Assembly (NCBI GenBank): GCA_944391625.1 | Contig: CALXUG010000016.1 | Coordinates: forward strand, 1-52,018 | Length of the DNA: 52,018 nucleotides | From: an uncultured Clostridia bacterium | GTDB lineage: Bacteria; Bacillota; Peptococcia; Peptococcales; Peptococcaceae | Reading direction: 5' to 3' | Shown: piece after piece, positions 4,082 through 43,546 of the stretch | Layout: every line of letters starts with the position of its first letter | Numbering within the stretch: position 1 is the first letter of the stretch | The notes under the pieces: model-generated | The model's input: only the letters and a program-made list of their open reading frames with translations | Told to the model about the DNA's origin: nothing | The model's database searches: none | Made by a program: the position numbers and the translations under genes

Positions 4082-5053
4082 ATGATTCCATTTAGAAGCA
4101 GAAAGTATCAAAGACAGCAGCGGCTGCAAAGTCAGACCGATATTGCACAGATTGCCAGTCAGTGGATATTGCGCAGAGATCAGCTGCCTGAATATCGGTT
4201 TGCCATTGAATTAATGAGTCAGGCCGACAGAGAAGAAATTTTTTGGCAGTATTGGGACGAGCTAGACAGTTTTGCACAGCGGGATTTGGCACGGGCAACC
4301 TTTCAAGAATATTGGTTTCGGCTGATTGCCGATTACAGTGAACTGCCGCTGCGTAAAAAAGGACAGGCACTGGAGGCGCTAGGGTATATTCACAATCCCA
4401 ATGTGGTAAATTTTTTAGTGCAGGAAATGCGGCGGGATGACGAAAGTTTGCGTTTGGCTGCTGCCGGTGCTTTAAAAAAGCAGGATCCGGTTTTAATTAT
4501 TGAGCCTATGTTGGATGCATTGAGTCGGCCGGAAAATTTTCTGGCTTCACGGATTCATGATGTGTTACAATCATTGGGACCGAAGTTGATTCCGGTTATT
4601 CTGCAAAAGATAGAACAGGCAGATATCAATGGGAAAATTGTGATGGTGCAGTTGTTGGGCGCTTTTGGTGACAGCAGCGTGATACCGGCTTTGACAGAAC
4701 TTTTGGATACGCAGAATTATTTGCTGAAAAAAATGACAGTAGAAGCCATTGGACAAATTGAAGGGCAGGAGGTTTGTCCAATTCTGATTGATTTGTTGAA
4801 GGATGAAAATTGGCAGATTCGGCTGCTGGCGGCAGAGGCTATCGGACGAGGACGGTATTATCAGGCATGTCCGGCATTGAGAGAAGCATTTTATCAAGAG
4901 AATGACGGCTTGGTAAAAGAAATTATGGAAGAAATTTTATGCACTTTAGATGACAGCAATGAAACAATCACTTATTTATGGAGCAGACGAAGGAGCAAAC
5001 AAGACGATGGACGAAGTAGAACAAGTTGTGGAGAGTATGGATTTACAACCTGA
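4082..5053 (+). CDS. HEAT-repeat protein
   Basis: A 323-residue soluble protein. From about residue 95 it consists of helical HEAT / PBS-lyase-like repeats (for example ALGYIHNPNVVNFLVQ, LLGAFGDSSVIPALTELL, EAIGQIEGQEVCPILIDLL), which usually act as protein-binding scaffolds. It has no signal peptide or membrane segment. Its last 47 bases overlap the start of the mscS-like gene in another frame, so the Arg/Ser-rich C-terminus (after about residue 300) is shaped by that overlap. A link to the channel next door is suggested by this coupling but is not proven. Confidence 0.8.
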   Translation: MIPFRSRKYQRQQRLQSQTDIAQIASQWILRRDQLPEYRFAIELMSQADREEIFWQYWDELDSFAQRDLARATFQEYWFRLIADYSELPLRKKGQALEALGYIHNPNVVNFLVQEMRRDDESLRLAAAGALKKQDPVLIIEPMLDALSRPENFLASRIHDVLQSLGPKLIPVILQKIEQADINGKIVMVQLLGAFGDSSVIPALTELLDTQNYLLKKMTVEAIGQIEGQEVCPILIDLLKDENWQIRLLAAEAIGRGRYYQACPALREAFYQENDGLVKEIMEEILCTLDDSNETITYLWSRRRSKQDDGRSRTSCGEYGFTT

Positions 5054-31090: not shown

Positions 31091-31184
31091 ATAAATTGCT
31101 GCCGTAGGACAATGACTTTTTGCTGCATGTACCTATGAAGCGATGACAGAAAAATCAGAACAAACAGAAGTTGGAGGGATTATT

Positions 31185-32114
31185 TTGCAAAGGACAAGTA
31201 TGATCGCCAAGTTGGCGTTACTGTTGGCGACAATTATATGGGGAAGTTCTTTTATTGTGATGAAGGACGCGTTGGATAATCTGGGCACCTTTTATTTGCT
31301 GGGCGTGCGGTTTATGGGCGCGTGCATATTATTGGCAGCGATCTTTTGGTACAAATTCAAATCGTTTAACATTTATTATGTCAAAGCAGGATTTGTCATG
31401 GGCACAGCGCTGCTTGCCGCCTATGCGGTGCAAACCTTTGGGCTGGCCGAAACCACACCGGGCAAAAATGCTTTCTTAACTGCCGGATATTGTGTCATGG
31501 TGCCGTTTTTGTATTGGCTGATTGCCGGTAAAAAACCGGACCGCTACAATATTTCTGCTGCCATTCTTTGTGTGGCAGGTATTGGCATGGTATCATTGGA
31601 CAGTAATCTCACCATGGGCAGAGGTGATTTGCTCACCATCATCTGCGGTGTATTTTATGCGCTGCACATTATAGTGTCTGCTCGTTATACACAAGATTCC
31701 GATGTGATTTTGCTGACCATCAGTCAGTTTTTCTTTGCCGGTGTGTGGAGTTGGGGATTTAGCTTTGCGTTTGAAACCATGCCGGCTGCTGCAAGCATTC
31801 CGGTAGATACCTGGCTCAGTCTGGCTTATCTGTGCGTATTTGCTACTGCCGGCGCTTTGGGCCTGCAAATGTATGGATTAAAATATACAACACCATCTGC
31901 CGGTGCGCTGATTCTCAGCCTGGAAGCCGTATTCGGCGTGCTGTTTAGTGTACTGCTGGGAGCAGAGGCCGTTACCTTGCGTTTATTGCTGGGCTTTGCC
32001 GTTATCTTCGTTGCCATTGTGGTATCCGAAACAAAACTGGAATTTTTGCACAAACCAAAAAAGCAGGTTTGTGATGAAACCAACACAGGAGAATGCTGCT
32101 CTGGGGAGTGTTAG
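31185..32114 (+). CDS. DMT superfamily (EamA) transporter
   Basis: A 309-residue inner-membrane carrier with ten predicted segments arranged as two EamA repeats (first opening LALLLATIIWGSSFIVMKD, second around LLTIICGVFYALHIIVSARYT). EamA proteins export small metabolites or amino acids. GGAGGG (31173-31178) fits the TTG at 31185; ATG 31200 with AAAGGA is an alternative. The tail ends in cysteines (ECCSGEC). Substrate unknown. Confidence 0.9.
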   Translation: MQRTSMIAKLALLLATIIWGSSFIVMKDALDNLGTFYLLGVRFMGACILLAAIFWYKFKSFNIYYVKAGFVMGTALLAAYAVQTFGLAETTPGKNAFLTAGYCVMVPFLYWLIAGKKPDRYNISAAILCVAGIGMVSLDSNLTMGRGDLLTIICGVFYALHIIVSARYTQDSDVILLTISQFFFAGVWSWGFSFAFETMPAAASIPVDTWLSLAYLCVFATAGALGLQMYGLKYTTPSAGALILSLEAVFGVLFSVLLGAEAVTLRLLLGFAVIFVAIVVSETKLEFLHKPKKQVCDETNTGECCSGEC

Positions 32115-37038: not shown

Positions 37039-38979
37039 TTAAGAGATTTTTTGGAGTTCTGATGTTGTATCATAGTCTTCAACGGATTCTACGGAAAGAT
37101 ACAATTTAATAAAATTAGCTTTTACGCCAAAAATATTGCGCGAATGGGTCAGTCTTCCCTGACTGTTGCGCTCTACCAATTCCAGCTCTGCCCAGCGATG
37201 GACGATGGCGGTGTAGTTGTAGCCGTGCCGCTCCAGTTGGTCGGATAGTACTGATTTGTTAATCATCACATGGCTGCCGTCTTCGGCAATTTTGCCCCAG
37301 ATTTCGCCGTTTTGATCGCGGCGGAATCGATTGCTGCTGCGGGCGATTAAGTCACAGCAGAACTGATATGCCTGCCGGGCGCTGTCGATTTCTTCGTTGC
37401 GGCGCAGATAGGGCTGCACTTCGGCTATGGTGAGCGGTGCCTGGCCGGAAAAAATGCAGCCGCAGGCCAGTTGGTCAGCCAAAAGCAGGGCGGCCATGCT
37501 GGCAGCTTGTTTGTCGCTGGTGTCGCAGGCTGCTGACAGCTGCTGCTGCAATTGTGCAAACCGTTGCTGCAGCTGGGGCAGAGGCTGGGTTTGCACATAG
37601 GCTACAAACTCCGGCCCTGCCCAGCCGTAATTATGCCGCAGGATGTTGGCTGCGGCAAGACCATCGGCAAACAGCTTGCCGGTAGCTTCTACTTCCAGCA
37701 CCCGATTGCGAACGCCGTCACCGGAACGCTGATTGGTGATGGGCTGTTCACCGGTAAACAAAAAAGTATTGCGCCAGGTGGTCAGCGCTTCAATGCCGCC
37801 CTGGGCTTTGGCGCGGCTGCGGTCCATACCTTCGGTGAGCTGCATAATGAGGGCGTTGGTGTCGGTCCATTGCTGTTCTACTTGCTGCAGTTCATCGGCG
37901 GCAAAGGGCAGATGGTTCAAAAAAGCGGCGGTGCGGGCCATGGCATTGTTGGTCATATTTAATGTGCGCACCAGAGCGCCGTTTTCCGGATTGCCCCAGA
38001 TGCTCTGCGCCAGCATCAGGCTCAGGGTTTTGCCAAAGCCGGAGCGTCCCCACAGATGATATACATAGGGCAGTGCGCCCAGTGGTTCCAGCAGCACGCT
38101 GGACAAGGACGCCGCCATAGTCATGCGCAGAATAACATGGTGTTCGCTTTGCCGCAATTGTTCCACCAAATCAAACCATTGGTGCCAGTGGCCCTTGGTA
38201 TGAAATTGCTGGTATAACTGCTGAAATTCCGGTTCGGTGTCGCATTGCAAGGCGGTTGTATAGGGAAAAAATCTGTTGTCATGCCAACCCAGCTGGCAAG
38301 TGGTATGCACCCAGGGCAGCGCCTGGCTGTCCGGCCAGTCCTGCTGGCTGAGACTGACAGTTTGATGCAGATAGGCCACCAGATGGCGGGCGTTTTCGCT
38401 GCTGATGAGAATGCCGTGCCGCGCCAGCTGCACAATCTGTTTGCTGTCATAGCAGAGGGTGCAGGGCACTGTGATGGTGCGCCAGGCGGCATCGCGGTAA
38501 AAGGCCAGCTGCAGTTTTTCCTCGCCGGTTTGTTTGTTGATCAGCCGTTTGACGGGCAAAATGGGATGGGCGCAGGCGGTTTGCCGATGCAGCGTGCCAT
38601 CCTTTTGCAGCTGCTGCCGATAGACGCCGCTGTCGTTGGCAGTCCAGTCGCCGCAGCGCAGCACCAGCGGCCCGTCGGTAAATGCGGTGGTGTTGCTGTC
38701 GGCAATACCAGTGATATGTTGGTTTTGCTGCCGAATCCACTGGTCAAAGGTTTGATTAAACTGGGTCAGCCGTTTTTGCTGCCGAAAAATATCGCGCAGC
38801 TGGGTTAATAGCTGCTGTCGCGCCAGATTATCGGCAATGCTGCCGATGGTAGTAAATTGGGTGTCGCCAAATGAACCGCCTTTGCGGGCATAATCCAGCA
38901 AAATGGTGTCAGACTGGCGCTGACAGTCGGTTGGCGAAGGGTTGCTCTGCTTGCTGCAGAGATCTGTGTTTGTTTGCAT
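37039..38979 (-). CDS. DUF927 domain ATPase (plasmid/phage replication-type protein)
   Basis: A 646-residue protein with the DUF927 pattern: a Gln-rich N-terminal half, then LGALPYVYHLWGRSGFGKT with Walker A GRSGFGKT (311-318), a DE-containing stretch (LPFAADELQQVEQ), TEGMDRSRAKAQGG and TWRNTFLFTGEQPI. The C-terminal 150 residues look like a DNA-binding winged helix. DUF927 proteins occur in plasmids, prophages and integrative elements and are thought to act in DNA replication as helicase-like ATPases. GAAAGGAGCC precedes the ATG at 38979. Glutamine is very abundant and the GC content is higher than in the flanking AT-rich DNA. Confidence 0.85.
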   Translation of the reverse strand: MQTNTDLCSKQSNPSPTDCQRQSDTILLDYARKGGSFGDTQFTTIGSIADNLARQQLLTQLRDIFRQQKRLTQFNQTFDQWIRQQNQHITGIADSNTTAFTDGPLVLRCGDWTANDSGVYRQQLQKDGTLHRQTACAHPILPVKRLINKQTGEEKLQLAFYRDAAWRTITVPCTLCYDSKQIVQLARHGILISSENARHLVAYLHQTVSLSQQDWPDSQALPWVHTTCQLGWHDNRFFPYTTALQCDTEPEFQQLYQQFHTKGHWHQWFDLVEQLRQSEHHVILRMTMAASLSSVLLEPLGALPYVYHLWGRSGFGKTLSLMLAQSIWGNPENGALVRTLNMTNNAMARTAAFLNHLPFAADELQQVEQQWTDTNALIMQLTEGMDRSRAKAQGGIEALTTWRNTFLFTGEQPITNQRSGDGVRNRVLEVEATGKLFADGLAAANILRHNYGWAGPEFVAYVQTQPLPQLQQRFAQLQQQLSAACDTSDKQAASMAALLLADQLACGCIFSGQAPLTIAEVQPYLRRNEEIDSARQAYQFCCDLIARSSNRFRRDQNGEIWGKIAEDGSHVMINKSVLSDQLERHGYNYTAIVHRWAELELVERNSQGRLTHSRNIFGVKANFIKLYLSVESVEDYDTTSELQKIS

Positions 38980-39042
38980 AAGAGGCTCCTTTCTATGGCT
39001 CGTTTGCATTAGTTGCATGAATTTTGTCAATTTGTTATTAAG

Positions 39043-39142
39043 TTGCGCAATTTTTCTTGTGGCTACAGCATAACACATCTGTAATTACTTGGCAAGCAAT
39101 TTTGCGCAAACAGTTGACAAATGGTATGCAACAAGGTATGCT
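39043..39142. promoter_or_regulatory. divergent promoters and TTGCGCAA operators of the DUF927/XRE pair
   Basis: Rightward: TTGACA (39114-39119), 17 bp, TATGCT (39137-39142). Leftward: TTGCCA (39090-39095), 17 bp, TATGCT (39067-39072). The palindrome TTTGCGCAAA (39101-39110) lies between the two -35 elements, and TTGCGCAA recurs at 39043-39050 just after the leftward start point. The XRE protein is the obvious candidate to bind both. Confidence 0.75.
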
Positions 39143-39186
39143 GAAGATACCAAAACAGCGATTGCCAAAGGAAGGATGATGTTGTA

Positions 39187-39936
39187 ATGGCAAATGAGAA
39201 CGAGCAGCAGGGCGATTGGCAGGAAGATGAAGTAGCGCAGTGGACATCGACTGAGGGCCGTCATATGATAAGTAAGGGCCGCAATATTGGCTATTGGAAG
39301 AACGGCCGTTCATTGGAAGGAACGCTGGTGCCCATGCCGGTGTTTATGCGGTCGGCGCTGATGCAGGGCCGGCGGGAGGCGCTGGGGTTGACGCTGGAGG
39401 ATGTGGCGGAGAAGGTTGGCGTTAATAAATCCACCATTCAGCGGTATGAAAGCGGCAAAATTAAACGGATTCCCAACGATGTGCTGGATAAGCTGGAGGA
39501 ATTGTACGGCGCCAGTCTGCGGGAGGCCTGGGTGGATAATACCAAACAGCCGGAGCGCACCGAGCAGACCACGCCGGTATCTATTGTGCAGGAATATCCT
39601 GCCACGCTGGAGCAGCAGCTGCGGGAGAATCAGGATACAGTGCAGCATTTTCATTATGATATCACGGTGCAGCATGATGTATTGGAGCGCAATCCCGATC
39701 TGATGCATAGTGTGGAGGAGCTGGTGATGATTCTGGGGGATCTGGACCCTATCCAGAGAAATCTTGTGTATCGTTTAACCAATCAGTTCTCAATGCAAAA
39801 TCAATACCACCAGCATGTAATGGAGTCCTCGCGGTTTCACGGCGCAAGATTGATGTATGAGAAAGTGCGGGATATGGTGGACGAGCAGCAGCGGGAGGAA
39901 CTGGAGCAGTATCTGAATAGCGAGAATTTTACTTAA
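39187..39936 (+). CDS. XRE family regulator
   Basis: A 249-residue phage-repressor-like protein. HTH at about 58-108 (RREALGLTLEDVAEKVGVNK, then STIQRYESGKI). The N-terminal 50 residues are acidic and polar; the C-terminal half is helical and Gln/Glu-rich, probably for multimerisation. AAGGAAGGATGA lies 8 or more bp before the ATG. It is divergent from the DUF927 gene, and its terminator is now separated from it by the 3.5-kb cassette. Confidence 0.88.
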   Translation: MANENEQQGDWQEDEVAQWTSTEGRHMISKGRNIGYWKNGRSLEGTLVPMPVFMRSALMQGRREALGLTLEDVAEKVGVNKSTIQRYESGKIKRIPNDVLDKLEELYGASLREAWVDNTKQPERTEQTTPVSIVQEYPATLEQQLRENQDTVQHFHYDITVQHDVLERNPDLMHSVEELVMILGDLDPIQRNLVYRLTNQFSMQNQYHQHVMESSRFHGARLMYEKVRDMVDEQQREELEQYLNSENFT

Positions 39937-39940
39937 TTGG

Positions 39941-39966
39941 TGAAGTATCCATAAAAAGAATAAGCC
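39941..39966. repeat. left 26-bp direct repeat of the 3.5-kb cassette
   Basis: Starts TGAAGTATCCATAAAAAG and ends AATAAGCC; identical to 43482-43507. Here it is followed by cassette DNA, not by the terminator stem found after the right copy. Confidence 0.9.
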
Positions 39967-40041
39967 GTAAATTGAATATAGGATGGTTTTATTCTGATAA
40001 CCAAAAAATTCTAGTTTTTTCATTTGTGTAAGGTTACTATT

Positions 40042-40069
40042 TTGTCGGTAGAAAAGAGAATAGTAAAAT
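40042..40069 (+). promoter_or_regulatory. promoter of the ECF sigma operon
   Basis: -35 TTGTCG (40042-40047), 16-bp spacer, -10 TAAAAT (40064-40069), 83 bp before the TTG start. Confidence 0.55.
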
Positions 40070-40151
40070 TTTTGATTTTTTTGTCAGAAAACAATGTTTT
40101 GTAAAGAAATAGAGTAATGAGAAAAAATGAAAAAACTAGAGGTGACACATA

Positions 40152-40676
40152 TTGAATATTCTTAGTGTATGTCTTGCGTTAATTGAGGATAAAGCAGAAC
40201 AAGATAAATTTGAAGCGCTTTATTATCAATATCGAGGGTTGATGTATTATTGTGCTCAAAAGTTACTACATGATGAACATTTGGCTGAGGATGCGGTAAG
40301 CATTGCGTTTCTACAAGTTGCACAGAATATGGATAAAGTTGACGAAGTTATGTCGGCTAGTACGAAACGGTTAATGGTTACGATTGTAGAACGAAAGGCG
40401 ATGACATTATATCAGCGTCAACAGCGAGAATATAACCGTACAGTGGATATGGATGAAGTTATCTGTGAAGCCACTTCATTAGGTACAGAAGAAAATGCAT
40501 TGATGGATGCAATTCTTCAATTACCGTTAATATATCAACAGGTAATTTTATTGAAATATTCTAGAGGTTATAGTAGTAAAGAGATTGCCGCCATTTTAGA
40601 TTATACGGTGGCGCAAGTAGATCAGTTGTTAAGCAGAGGGCGTCGTCGGCTCAAAAAATTATTAGAGGCGGTGTAG
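40152..40676 (+). CDS. ECF-type RNA polymerase sigma factor
   Basis: A 174-residue sigma-70-family protein. Region 2 is FEALYYQYRGLMYYCAQKLL ... AEDAVSIAFLQVAQ (about 20-60). Region 4 is LPLIYQQVILLKYSRGYSSK followed by EIAAILDYTVAQVDQLLSRG (about 125-165), ending in a basic RRRLKKLL. It starts with TTG at 40152 behind AGAGGTGA. The next gene encodes its probable membrane anti-sigma partner. Targets may include the secreted-protein operon just downstream. Confidence 0.9.
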   Translation: MNILSVCLALIEDKAEQDKFEALYYQYRGLMYYCAQKLLHDEHLAEDAVSIAFLQVAQNMDKVDEVMSASTKRLMVTIVERKAMTLYQRQQREYNRTVDMDEVICEATSLGTEENALMDAILQLPLIYQQVILLKYSRGYSSKEIAAILDYTVAQVDQLLSRGRRRLKKLLEAV

Positions 40677-40679
40677 AGC

Positions 40680-41378
40680 TTGAGATTTACTGAAAAACAG
40701 TTATGTCAGGCGGCAAGAAGAGCTGACGAAAAATTGCTATCACAATTGTCTGACGAAACTTCCTACCAAGAATACGTGTTTTCTGAAACTTTTGAACAAA
40801 AGATGAAGTGGCTTATTCAGCAAATGCGTGTCAAGAATATAAAACAGAAGAAAGTTTTTCTTGGGTGGCAGTATTATATACGTAACGGTGTTGCGGTTAT
40901 ATTACTCTGTTTCTTTTTAACTTGTATTACTATACCAAATGTTGTACAGGCAGGATATTATAAATTGATTGAGGTAATAGAAACAGTGTTAACAGAATAT
41001 ACCAGATATCAGTACCACTCTACGGAACAGACGGATGAACTATTCATTCCAGTAACATTCGGTTATTTGCCGGAAGGCATGAAAGAAATTACTTATCGTG
41101 AAACGGAAACAAGTGTACATACTATATACAGAAATCAATATCAGTACTTTAGATTAGAACAGCGAATATTTAGGCATATTGATGGTATGACGTATATTAT
41201 TGATACAGAGGATACGACTATTGAGACAGTTTGTATAGGGACAGAAAAAATACAGTTAATTAAAAAAAATGGTGTGTATAGTTATGTGTGGTTACATGAA
41301 AAATATCATATAAAAGGACAGAGTAACTTGTCCATTGAAGAGATTATAAAAATTTTAGAAACAATCACAATAGAATAA
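40680..41378 (+). CDS. DUF4367-like membrane protein (probable anti-sigma factor)
   Basis: A 232-residue protein with a cytoplasmic N-terminal region (1-65), one membrane helix (about 69-86) and an outside DUF4367-like domain (FIPVTFGYLPEGMKEITYRE ... KIQLIKKNGVYSYVWL). Such proteins are commonly encoded after ECF sigma genes in Clostridia and are thought to hold the sigma factor at the membrane. TTG start at 40680 behind GAGGCGGTG, 3 bp after the sigma stop. Confidence 0.8.
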   Translation: MRFTEKQLCQAARRADEKLLSQLSDETSYQEYVFSETFEQKMKWLIQQMRVKNIKQKKVFLGWQYYIRNGVAVILLCFFLTCITIPNVVQAGYYKLIEVIETVLTEYTRYQYHSTEQTDELFIPVTFGYLPEGMKEITYRETETSVHTIYRNQYQYFRLEQRIFRHIDGMTYIIDTEDTTIETVCIGTEKIQLIKKNGVYSYVWLHEKYHIKGQSNLSIEEIIKILETITIE

Positions 41379-41379
41379 G

Positions 41380-41484
41380 AAATACCGTTACTAGTTATTT
41401 GTGGAATTCTTTTGAGAGTTAGAGAGTAAACCTAATACTTGAGAGATTAATTCAGTGGAAAAGAACTGGTAGCGGTATTTTTGT
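41380..41484 (+). terminator. terminator of the sigma/anti-sigma operon
   Basis: AAATACCGTTACTAGTT (41380-41396) pairs with AACTGGTAGCGGTATTT (41464-41480), two G-T pairs, with a 67-nt loop, then a short T run. Confidence 0.6.
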
Positions 41485-41732
41485 TTATGTTTCATAAAAA
41501 ATTAGAAAAAGCTGTCAGATTTTTATGATTTAGATAGATATAGAAGATAGGAAATTGTAAAAGTTGAAGCAATAAAACGCCATTTTTAGGGAGACTAGCG
41601 CTAATTGTGTATTATGCTGAAAATAGTGAAAGAAACGTATAAATATACGTACTTAAAAAGGGTTTTATTAAACCGGCTTTTAGACTTATACAATTACCTA
41701 AGATACGGAAGGTAAAAGGAGGTGAAGATGGG
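41485..41732. promoter_or_regulatory. control region of the secreted-protein operon
   Basis: A short inverted repeat ACGTATA-AA-TATACGT (41635-41650) and an A/T-rich segment with TACAAT near 41688 lie before a strong AAAGGAGGTG site. It could be an ECF or sigma-A promoter; I cannot decide. Confidence 0.35.
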
Positions 41733-42185
41733 ATGAAACAGAAGATAAAAAAAGCGGTTGCGATAATTTGCATGGGATCTGTAGTTTTAACAGCAGCGCC
41801 AACAGCTTCTATGGCAGGGAATATGTCTTTTTCGGTTGAAAGTCAGCAGGAAAATGATATCTCTCCATATATGATGTATATTCGAGATGCAATAAGTGCT
41901 TTATGGATTTCAGGCACAACAGCTACAGTAGATTGTAGTGTTTTAGGCACAGATGGTGTTGCAACAAAGGCAAAGGTAATTGCCGAATTACAGTTAAAGA
42001 GCGGTGACAACTGGTTACCAGTAAAAATTTGGACAGCAACAGAAAATGATTGCGAAGCTTATGTGTATGACACATATAAAGTGAAATCGGGAAACATTTA
42101 CCGAGTAAAAGCAACTGTAACTGTATGGGAAGGAAATTTATCAGAAACACAATATGTATATAGCGGAGAACAAAAATGCAATTAA
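41733..42185 (+). CDS. secreted protein of unknown function (cassette)
   Basis: A 150-residue exported protein. The signal peptide (KKAVAIICMGSVVLTAAPTA, cleavage near SMA-GN at residue 28) is followed by a Thr/Val/Tyr-rich beta domain (DNWLPVKIWTATENDCEAYV). Two cysteines near residues 69 and 110, plus one near the C-terminus, could form disulfides. I do not recognise the family. AAAGGAGGTGAAGATGGG precedes the ATG. Co-transcribed with the hydrolase gene behind it. Confidence 0.7.
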   Translation: MKQKIKKAVAIICMGSVVLTAAPTASMAGNMSFSVESQQENDISPYMMYIRDAISALWISGTTATVDCSVLGTDGVATKAKVIAELQLKSGDNWLPVKIWTATENDCEAYVYDTYKVKSGNIYRVKATVTVWEGNLSETQYVYSGEQKCN

Positions 42186-42186
42186 T

Positions 42187-42246
42187 TTATAAAGGACAGT
42201 GATAAATTATGAAAAATTATAAAGGACAGTGATAAATTATGAAAAA
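42187..42246 (+). repeat. 30-bp tandem duplication of a ribosome site and start codon
   Basis: The unit containing AAAGGACAGTGATAAATTATG occurs twice (AAAGGACAGT at 42191 and 42221, period 30). The first copy's ATG (42209) opens a seven-codon frame MKNYKGQ that stops at the second copy's ribosome site; the second ATG (42239) starts the hydrolase gene. Confidence 0.85.
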
Positions 42247-42988
42247 ACAACTAAAAAAAATGATGGCAGTTGTATTAACGACTGTGATGGCATTATCAGT
42301 TCCGACATTTACAGCATTTGCAGCAGATGAACACAGTTACGAAACATTGTTTCCGTACGAAAAATATTTGGAAAAGGTTGAACAGGGGTATATTGCTCCA
42401 GATGTTTCCTATGAGACATTGGCGAGAGCAAATCAGAAAACTTTTGAAGATTTATGTTCTTCTATGGACAACAATCCTAATTTTACTTTAATTTACGAGA
42501 GTGATAGTTATATAGATCCGTTAACAGTAGTAGAAACATTATATCCAGGAGATGTTTTTATTATGGAGGATACGTTAACCTCTAGTGCTATTTTAGGGCA
42601 TGCAGCAATGGCGGTTTCAAATACTGAAATTGCGAATATTGTAGGGGAAGAAACTGTAGCTGACATTGTGCCTAGAAGTACATTTGATGACTACTATAAA
42701 AATCAAGAAAGAGCTGTTAAAATTTATAGGTCTAATAATTATAACTGGGGTGTAGATGCTGCACTCTGGGCAGACAAAACTTTCAGAGGAACCAAGATCC
42801 CTTACAAGATTACGATGAATTTAACAAGTACTAGTTCAGTATATTGTTCTAAATTGGTATACCAAGCGTATCGTTATGGTGCAGGATTTACCTCTCTATG
42901 GCGAGAAGAAAACTATGATATAATTACACCATATGGATTACCGGACTATATTAAAATTGGTAAGCATGGTGAATATGATACGGAATGA
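42239..42988 (+). CDS. secreted permuted NlpC/P60-type hydrolase
   Basis: A 249-residue exported protein; signal peptide to about Ala28 (TAFA-ADE). The order GDVFIMEDTLTSSAILGHAAM (His121) before SVYCSKLVYQAYRYG (Cys203) is the circularly permuted papain/NlpC-P60 layout (YiiX/YycO-like), where His precedes Cys. Relatives are amidases or peptidases acting on wall peptides or lipids. The stop codon overlaps the start of the next gene (ATGA), so they are translationally coupled. The substrate is unknown. Confidence 0.8.
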   Translation: MKKQLKKMMAVVLTTVMALSVPTFTAFAADEHSYETLFPYEKYLEKVEQGYIAPDVSYETLARANQKTFEDLCSSMDNNPNFTLIYESDSYIDPLTVVETLYPGDVFIMEDTLTSSAILGHAAMAVSNTEIANIVGEETVADIVPRSTFDDYYKNQERAVKIYRSNNYNWGVDAALWADKTFRGTKIPYKITMNLTSTSSVYCSKLVYQAYRYGAGFTSLWREENYDIITPYGLPDYIKIGKHGEYDTE

Positions 42989-43455
42989 TGAAAAATAAGT
43001 TTTTGTCTCGTATAGTGACTTGTGTGCTGATTTTTGTACTTGGTGTAGTAAGCTATTCTGCTGTGATGTTTGTGTACAAGGATACCAAATACACTTTGAT
43101 GAAAGATATTGCTGTATGTGCAGTGACGGCGTATTTAGAAGCGCAGGGATATGATGATGAGGTGGAGAAGCTTACTTGCGGCGTGGATAAAGTGGAAAAC
43201 TATTGGGTGAATGTTGAATTTTATCAGGATCAATGGCGATATATGTATGTATATTGGCCAAAGGAACCGGGGATTTTTGTAATAGTACCTAACCGACGAG
43301 TTGGGGAAGCGCCGCCGCAGCACTGTCCAGACTATGATGACAGGGAAGCGGGTTATATTGTATTTTACTATGGGTTAGATGACTACTTGCAGGAACATGA
43401 TTTTTCAGAATGGGAAACCTATGTAAAAAGAACACTTTTTGAACAGCATCTGTGA
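42985..43455 (+). CDS. small membrane protein (DUF3139-like)
   Basis: A 156-residue protein with one N-terminal membrane helix (about 9-30) and an outside domain with AYLEAQGYDDEVEKLTCGV, then NYWVNVEFYQDQWRYMYVYW. The spacing resembles DUF3139 proteins, though the match is weak. It overlaps the hydrolase gene by 4 bp. This tight coupling of a secreted hydrolase and a membrane protein could mean immunity or anchoring, but that is inference. Confidence 0.6.
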   Translation: MMKNKFLSRIVTCVLIFVLGVVSYSAVMFVYKDTKYTLMKDIAVCAVTAYLEAQGYDDEVEKLTCGVDKVENYWVNVEFYQDQWRYMYVYWPKEPGIFVIVPNRRVGEAPPQHCPDYDDREAGYIVFYYGLDDYLQEHDFSEWETYVKRTLFEQHL

Positions 43456-43481
43456 TGAACGGCTATCAATTGGTGCTGACT

Positions 43482-43507
43482 TGAAGTATCCATAAAAAGA
43501 ATAAGCC
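43482..43507. repeat. right 26-bp direct repeat of the 3.5-kb cassette
   Basis: Identical to 39941-39966. An additional AATTGGTG lies shortly before both copies (39935 and 43468). Here the repeat leads directly into a complete terminator stem. Confidence 0.9.
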
Positions 43508-43546
43508 ATTGCACAAGCAAATTTGTGCAGTGGCTTATTGCTTTTT
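43500..43546. terminator. terminator split from the XRE gene by the cassette
   Basis: AATAAGCCATTGCACAA pairs with TTTGTGCAGTGGCTTATT around GCAAA, then CTTTTT. Its first eight bases are also at the end of the left direct repeat, so this was probably the original terminator of the XRE gene at 39936. Confidence 0.75.

What the first reader, a model, noticed from the sequence alone, without database searches (positions are those of the whole stretch)
39941..43507. 3.5-kb cassette between 26-bp direct repeats, carrying a sigma factor and secreted proteins
A 26-bp sequence occurs at 39941-39966 and 43482-43507. Only after the right copy does the terminator continue, so the DNA between (ECF sigma, DUF4367 membrane protein, two secreted proteins, small membrane protein) appears inserted behind the XRE gene. 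It encodes no recombinase. It looks like a self-regulated secretion/effector cassette moved by another element.
Basis: partly seen in the sequence, partly recalled or inferred. Interest (0 to 1): 0.75.

Follow-up and report, generated by a model that had tools for sequence, protein, structure and literature searches.

The report
Relocating sigma-factor-controlled secreted-protein cassette
A small AT-rich gene block in a gut Peptococcaceae bacterium carries its own on/off switch (a sigma factor and a membrane anti-sigma-like sensor) driving secreted proteins, and it is one of a previously undescribed family of such blocks that sit at different chromosome sites in sister species with interchangeable cargo, some of it resembling bacterial toxins.

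Summary
The 26-bp exact direct repeat is real: only two copies in the 2.97-Mb genome, and chance gives at most about 15 nt. The DNA between is AT-rich and separates the XRE gene from a strong terminator. Sister species have the EamA gene directly followed by that terminator, so cassette, XRE gene and about 8 kb to their left are all absent there. An empty site with one 26-mer was not obtainable.

The cassette belongs to a genus-restricted, multi-copy family (about 12-15 loci in 5-6 of 8 genomes). Its head is constant: ECF sigma, a DUF4367 membrane protein whose outer domain models like the sigma-E sensor RseB, then usually a secreted Ig-like protein. Its tail is variable: secreted proteins sharing a signal-peptide-like leader on unrelated bodies, often with a small membrane protein. 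Sigma and secreted-protein promoters co-vary within loci, supporting self-regulation. Related modules lie at different sites in sisters, with empty orthologous sites, but no other testable copy has flanking repeats. The 26-mer is therefore a local scar, not the family's mobility signature.

Here the tail is a YiiX/LnsA-like cysteine enzyme plus a distant DUF3139-like membrane protein, a pairing recurrent on Bacillota plasmids. An effector-immunity pair is plausible, not shown.

The parts
39941..39966 (+). Left copy of the 26-bp direct repeat; carries only the start of the 5' arm (AATAAGCC) of the terminator
   Evidence: no terminator fold
40010..40140 (+). Perfect 16-bp inverted repeat (40010-40025 / 40125-40140) whose right arm abuts the sigma ribosome-binding site; read-through RNA would fold over it
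   Evidence: I3; fold z -3.6. Role inferred
40081..40111 (+). Putative ECF promoter of the sigma gene, TTGTCAG-N18-GAAATA
40152..40676 (+). ECF sigma factor (sigma-70 regions 2 and 4)
   Evidence: Pfam and NCBIfam
40680..41378 (+). DUF4367 membrane protein: N-terminal helices, one membrane helix (about residues 71-89), outer domain modelled RseB-like; putative anti-sigma/sensor
   Evidence: E 2.8e-14
41512..41542 (+). Putative second ECF promoter (CTGTCAG-N18-GATATA), in front of the secreted genes
41733..42185 (+). sec1: secreted small protein, seven-strand Ig/FnIII-like beta-sandwich; near-constant member of the module
42184..42243 (+). Tandem 30-nt duplication of ribosome-binding site plus start codon before the next gene
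   Evidence: D1, 97%
42239..42988 (+). Secreted permuted papain-like (Peptidase C92 / YiiX, LnsA-like) protein; His121, Tyr202 and Cys203 conserved in homologues
42985..43455 (+). One-TM protein (156 aa), distant DUF3139-like; overlaps the C92 gene by 4 bp; candidate partner/immunity protein
43482..43507 (+). Right copy of the 26-bp direct repeat, leading into the terminator
43494..43545 (+). Terminator conserved in sister species, there directly after EamA
   Evidence: (I2)

Best explanation
The cassette is one copy of a genus-restricted family of relocatable exoprotein modules. Constant head: an ECF sigma factor, a DUF4367 membrane protein acting as its anti-sigma (RseB-like outer domain as sensor), and usually a secreted Ig-like protein. 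Variable tail: secreted protein(s) with a shared leader, often with a small membrane protein. An outside signal is read by the DUF4367 domain and frees sigma, which fires two own-type promoters, one for sigma/anti-sigma (feedback) and one for the secreted genes. The tail here is a YiiX/LnsA-like cysteine enzyme with a DUF3139-like partner, most simply an exported enzyme and its inhibitor/immunity protein. The unit came to lie at a terminator in a species-specific 11.4-kb insertion; the 26-bp repeat is the duplicated junction of that event. Shown from sequence: gene content, co-varying promoters, absence at this site in sisters, different sites and empty sites for relatives, domain matches. Inferred: anti-sigma activity, the signal, effector/immunity roles, how it moved.
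For: Family and sites: 13 DUF4367 and 12 good sec1 matches lie in the same genus at different places; a genome-collection scan found ten loci, all titled Peptococcaceae bacterium. Empty sites: EamA and terminator directly joined in G003, G004, G005; adh-ABC gap 138-199 bp in G003, G005, G007 but about 4 kb with a module in G004. The closest pair, L075/L076 (82-84% protein identity, 100/100 support), sit at different sites in two species. Self-regulation: TGTC[AC]G-N18-GATATA-like sites before both sigma and sec1; the observed pairing is the best of 5040 permutations on the core elements. Sensor: eight of the nine best fold matches of the DUF4367 model are RseB. Tails: shared leader, unrelated bodies, with Ntox44 and Amidase_6. 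C92 next to annotated DUF3139 on eight Bacillota plasmids.
Against: No expression or biochemical data. The RseB match is weak (best E 9e-4, TM about 0.3; model mean pLDDT 71.6, membrane part poor). The window's DUF3139 resemblance is below Pfam's cut-off (10.9 v 27.3 bits) and its LnsA match far below NCBIfam's (72 v 225). No secretion or killing assay; most tail bodies match no family. Modules at the pgk locus and at C27 have sec1 but no leader-bearing effector. The permutation result rests on seven loci and hand-chosen promoter alignments. Genomes are drafts, mostly MAGs; differential loss cannot be fully excluded.
Confidence: 0.62

Rival explanations
1. The 26-bp repeats are attL/attR left by a tyrosine or serine recombinase acting in trans: the cassette is a non-autonomous integrative element that can excise as a circle, targeting the 5' arm of a terminator.
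For: An exact 26-bp repeat, probably about 40 nt with an 8-nt indel, exactly bounds an AT-rich block; 8 nt of it are ancestral terminator sequence.
Against: No flanking repeats at the other module copies that could be tested; no recombinase in the cassette; the 26-mer has no further copy in the genome and none in viral contigs.
Confidence: 0.28
2. Not mobile: old paralogues that arose by duplication and were differentially lost or rearranged; the 26-bp repeat is an unrelated local duplication.
For: Three species carry a module or its sec1 part at the same pgk locus, so some copies are vertically inherited; the window module is only 44-66% identical to its relatives in sigma and DUF4367 while trmB is 85%.
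Against: Close pair L075/L076 at different sites, the L075 site empty in the other's species; the window copy has GC3 0.26-0.39 against a native 0.48.
Confidence: 0.22
3. Envelope maintenance rather than antagonism: sigma answers envelope stress and switches on lipoprotein or cell-wall modification by the LnsA-like enzyme, with the DUF3139-like protein as its cofactor. (A different reading of the function, compatible with the module family.)
For: The RseB-like domain recalls envelope-stress sensing; LnsA is a lipoprotein N-acylation enzyme (PMC7387801); the C92 active-site residues are intact.
Against: Tails differ between loci and include a polymorphic-toxin domain and an amidase; C92 genes lie on plasmids as small as 3-5 kb, typical of accessory cargo.
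Confidence: 0.35
4. Assembly artefact: two unrelated stretches were joined at a shared 26-mer.
For: Draft genome (74 contigs); the two sides differ strongly in GC.
Against: The left copy lacks the terminator and the right copy has it, coherent with insertion; relatives of the module are found in independent assemblies; 26 bp is shorter than usual assembly overlaps (general knowledge).
Confidence: 0.04

Closest known systems
Polymorphic toxin systems (PMC3482391)
   Same: Conserved N-terminal export part with interchangeable bodies, small downstream genes, an Ntox44 body in one locus, strain-variable tails.
   Different: The constant part is only a signal-peptide-like leader of about 27 residues; no large trafficking domains or orphan cassettes seen; each locus has its own sigma/anti-sigma.
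VARTIG modules of Thermococcales (PMC8416519)
   Same: Ig-fold secreted protein upstream of variable combinations of genes; lineage-restricted.
   Different: The VARTIG Ig protein is large and hypervariable; here the Ig-like protein is small and conserved, with variable neighbours and an ECF switch. Compared from the abstract only.
ECF sigma / membrane anti-sigma pairs such as sigma-E-RseA-RseB
   Same: ECF sigma next to a one-TM membrane protein, apparently autoregulated; outer domain models like RseB.
   Different: The sensor domain appears fused to the membrane protein instead of separate; no sequence kinship to RseA/RseB tested; the target set seems limited to the locus.
LnsA, lipoprotein N-acylation enzyme (PMC7387801)
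   Same: Secreted permuted NlpC/P60 (YiiX-like) protein with conserved His/Tyr/Cys.
   Different: 72 bits against a curated cut-off of 225; paired with a DUF3139-like protein; no LnsB in the cassette.

Membership tests
ECF sigma factor | Sigma-70 regions 2 and 4 only | tested here: met
   Pfam r2 30.4 and r4_2 45.5 bits, above cut-offs; TIGR02937 65.6 v 42.9
Anti-sigma factor of an ECF pair | Adjacent membrane protein with cytoplasmic sigma-binding domain and outer sensor | tested here: inconclusive
   Adjacent in 12 loci; one TM and an RseB-like outer domain; sigma binding not tested
Autoregulated ECF operon | Same promoter type before sigma and target, co-varying between loci | tested here: met
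   Seven loci; best of 5040 permutations; promoter activity not tested
Peptidase C92 (YiiX) | Above Pfam cut-off, His/Cys dyad | tested here: met
   28.6 v 27 bits; H121, C203 conserved
LnsA | Above curated NCBIfam cut-off | tested here: not met
   72.2 v 225 bits
DUF3139 | Above Pfam cut-off | tested here: not met
   10.9 v 27.3 bits; a profile of C92-linked DUF3139 proteins scores 19.8 bits v 10.0 for the best of 20 shuffles, so a distant relative at most
Polymorphic toxin system | Shared N-terminal part with variable C-terminal toxin bodies | tested here: inconclusive
   Shared leader, several unrelated bodies, one Ntox44; toxicity unknown
Polymorphic toxin system | Cognate immunity gene downstream | tested here: inconclusive
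   Small membrane proteins follow several effectors; function not tested
Integrative element / transposon | Own recombinase, or end repeats shared by independent copies | tested here: not met
   None in the cassette; no flanking repeats at the other copies with enough flank
Integrative element / transposon | Empty site with one repeat copy in the same species | not testable with these tools
   No second genome of the species; sister sites lack the XRE part too

The most novel reading that the evidence does not exclude
A polymorphic exoprotein/toxin system in which each relocatable locus carries its own ECF sigma/RseB-fold anti-sigma switch with promoter specificity matched to that locus, plus interchangeable effector and partner genes.
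Probability: 0.35. Interest if true: 0.8.

Novelty: new variant of a known kind. Interest (0 to 1): 0.62.

Why it matters
It would be a new way to package secreted bacterial weapons or envelope-active enzymes: a portable unit bringing its own transcriptional switch, so it could work wherever it lands without host regulators. The co-varying sigma/promoter pairs are a natural set of parallel switches that can be tested directly, and the C92-DUF3139 pair gives a concrete, testable function for two poorly understood families found on Bacillota plasmids. No paper in the held library mentions DUF4367.

Tried and rejected
The 26-mer as family-wide mobility signature: no flanking repeats at the other copies with enough flank. 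Viral origin: no hit for the 26-mer, XRE or C92 in viral contigs, and no DNA match of the cassette in phages or plasmids. Rfam: nothing at 39.0-44.5 kb. PDB by sequence for C92: none. A genome-wide regulon: sites for the promoter pattern are not clearly more frequent than its control (17 v 12). Insertion just behind terminators as a rule: only 5 of 12 loci by an automatic test, background 13%, so not claimed. Fold of sec1: generic Ig/FnIII-like matches only.

Full report
Observation. The 26-mer is exact at 39941-39966 and 43482-43507 and has no other copy in the genome. Simulated sequence gives at most 15 nt. Similarity probably runs about 14 nt further left with an 8-nt indel (AATTGGTG / AATTGGTGCTGACTTG), so the original duplication may have been about 40 nt; this extension is read by eye. 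The right copy is followed by a strong hairpin terminator, the left is not. The five genes between are AT-rich.

Locus history. In sister species G003, G004 and G005 the EamA gene is followed directly by the same terminator and then small-trmB-gdh; other genus members keep the same gene order without the insert. The window species carries about 11.4 kb between these landmarks: nitroreductase, GNAT and flavodoxin genes (named from their sequences, not scanned), an HTH gene, a DUF927 phage-type helicase and XRE, then the cassette. The last 8 nt of the 26-mer (AATAAGCC) are ancestral terminator sequence. The window EamA protein has a different C-terminus from its sisters. I infer that the cassette arrived at the XRE-terminator junction, duplicating it; the order of events and the enzyme are not known.

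Family. The DUF4367 protein has a 45% relative elsewhere in the same genome (C27), next to relatives of sigma and sec1. Across the genus, 13 DUF4367 and 12 good sec1 matches were found, in G000, G001, G004, G005 and G007, with a partial sec1 in G006. Sites differ. For L075 (adh-ABC) and the C27 copy, sister genomes have the flanking genes close together, and at the L076 site the interval is much shorter in G004 and G000. L075 and L076 are the closest pair, 84% and 82% identical in sigma and DUF4367, at different sites. In contrast, G004, G005 and G007 share a module or sec1 at the pgk locus, so both relocation and vertical descent seem to occur.

Regulation. TGTCAG- or TGTCC-type -35 and GATATA-, GTTGTTA- or CGTT-type -10 elements, about 18 nt apart, lie before sigma and before sec1 in most loci. 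Within seven loci the two promoters resemble each other more than expected: the true pairing is the best of 5040 permutations on the core elements and within the top 2 over all 34 positions; alignments were chosen by hand. In the own genome the pattern has no clear excess beyond the cassette itself, suggesting a small regulon. The DUF4367 protein has N-terminal helices, one TM, and an outer beta domain whose best PDB matches are RseB, the periplasmic sensor of sigma-E; the match is weak in score but consistent. A 16-bp stem over the sigma ribosome-binding site would form in RNA reading through from the XRE gene, a plausible insulator, since that gene has lost its terminator. This is inference.

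Cargo. sec1 is an Ig/FnIII-like sandwich (pLDDT above 90 in its domain). Tail proteins of several loci share a leader of about 27 residues on unrelated bodies, including Ntox44 (L082) and Amidase_6 (L083); small membrane proteins follow several of them. The window tail is a C92/YiiX protein with conserved His121, Tyr202 and Cys203, LnsA-like but below the LnsA cut-off. On Bacillota plasmids such proteins sit next to an annotated DUF3139 protein in eight of the records read: Exiguobacterium, Macrococcus, Lysinibacillus, Macrococcoides, Brochothrix, Listeria innocua and two S. epidermidis plasmids. Other records have small unannotated neighbours; those of Priestia, B. subtilis and one S. epidermidis plasmid match the DUF3139 profile, those of Halobacillus, Peribacillus and SAP107 do not. 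The window's 156-aa protein scores 19.8 bits against that profile, the best of 20 TM-preserving shuffles 10.0. A DUF3139 gene also follows a lactococcin-972-family bacteriocin on an S. epidermidis plasmid (PMC8765612). Effector plus immunity is therefore the simplest reading of the pair; a lipoprotein-modification role remains open.

Verdict. Observation confirmed; interpretation partly supported. The repeat is best read as a local insertion scar; the more interesting result is the module family.

Noticed in passing
window 37039-39936: High-GC (0.52-0.54) pair: DUF927 phage-type primase/helicase (distant SCC Cch match, PHROG 8841) and an XRE protein with no full-length match in the genus; probably a phage or satellite remnant. 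DUF927 relatives occur in G004 and G007.
   Followed up: partly
window 31143-32114: EamA transporter has a replaced C-terminus relative to sister species, at the left edge of the 11.4-kb insertion.
   Followed up: partly
window 42184-42243: Tandem 30-nt duplication carrying a second ribosome-binding site and ATG before the C92 gene.
   Followed up: no
L074:6840-7451: TIR protein (ThsB-like) near a head-only module in G004, possibly a defence neighbourhood.
   Followed up: no
L082:2596-3492: Secreted protein with an Ntox44 domain behind a sister module; a second leader-bearing ORF starts at 4356.
   Followed up: partly
L079:1-147: IS30-like transposase N-terminus (recognised by eye) at the contig end next to a module tail.
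   Followed up: no
L076:10235-10423 and the end of the L083 tail: Similar 62-67 aa two-TM proteins lie behind unrelated effectors in two species, suggesting tail parts are shuffled.
   Followed up: no
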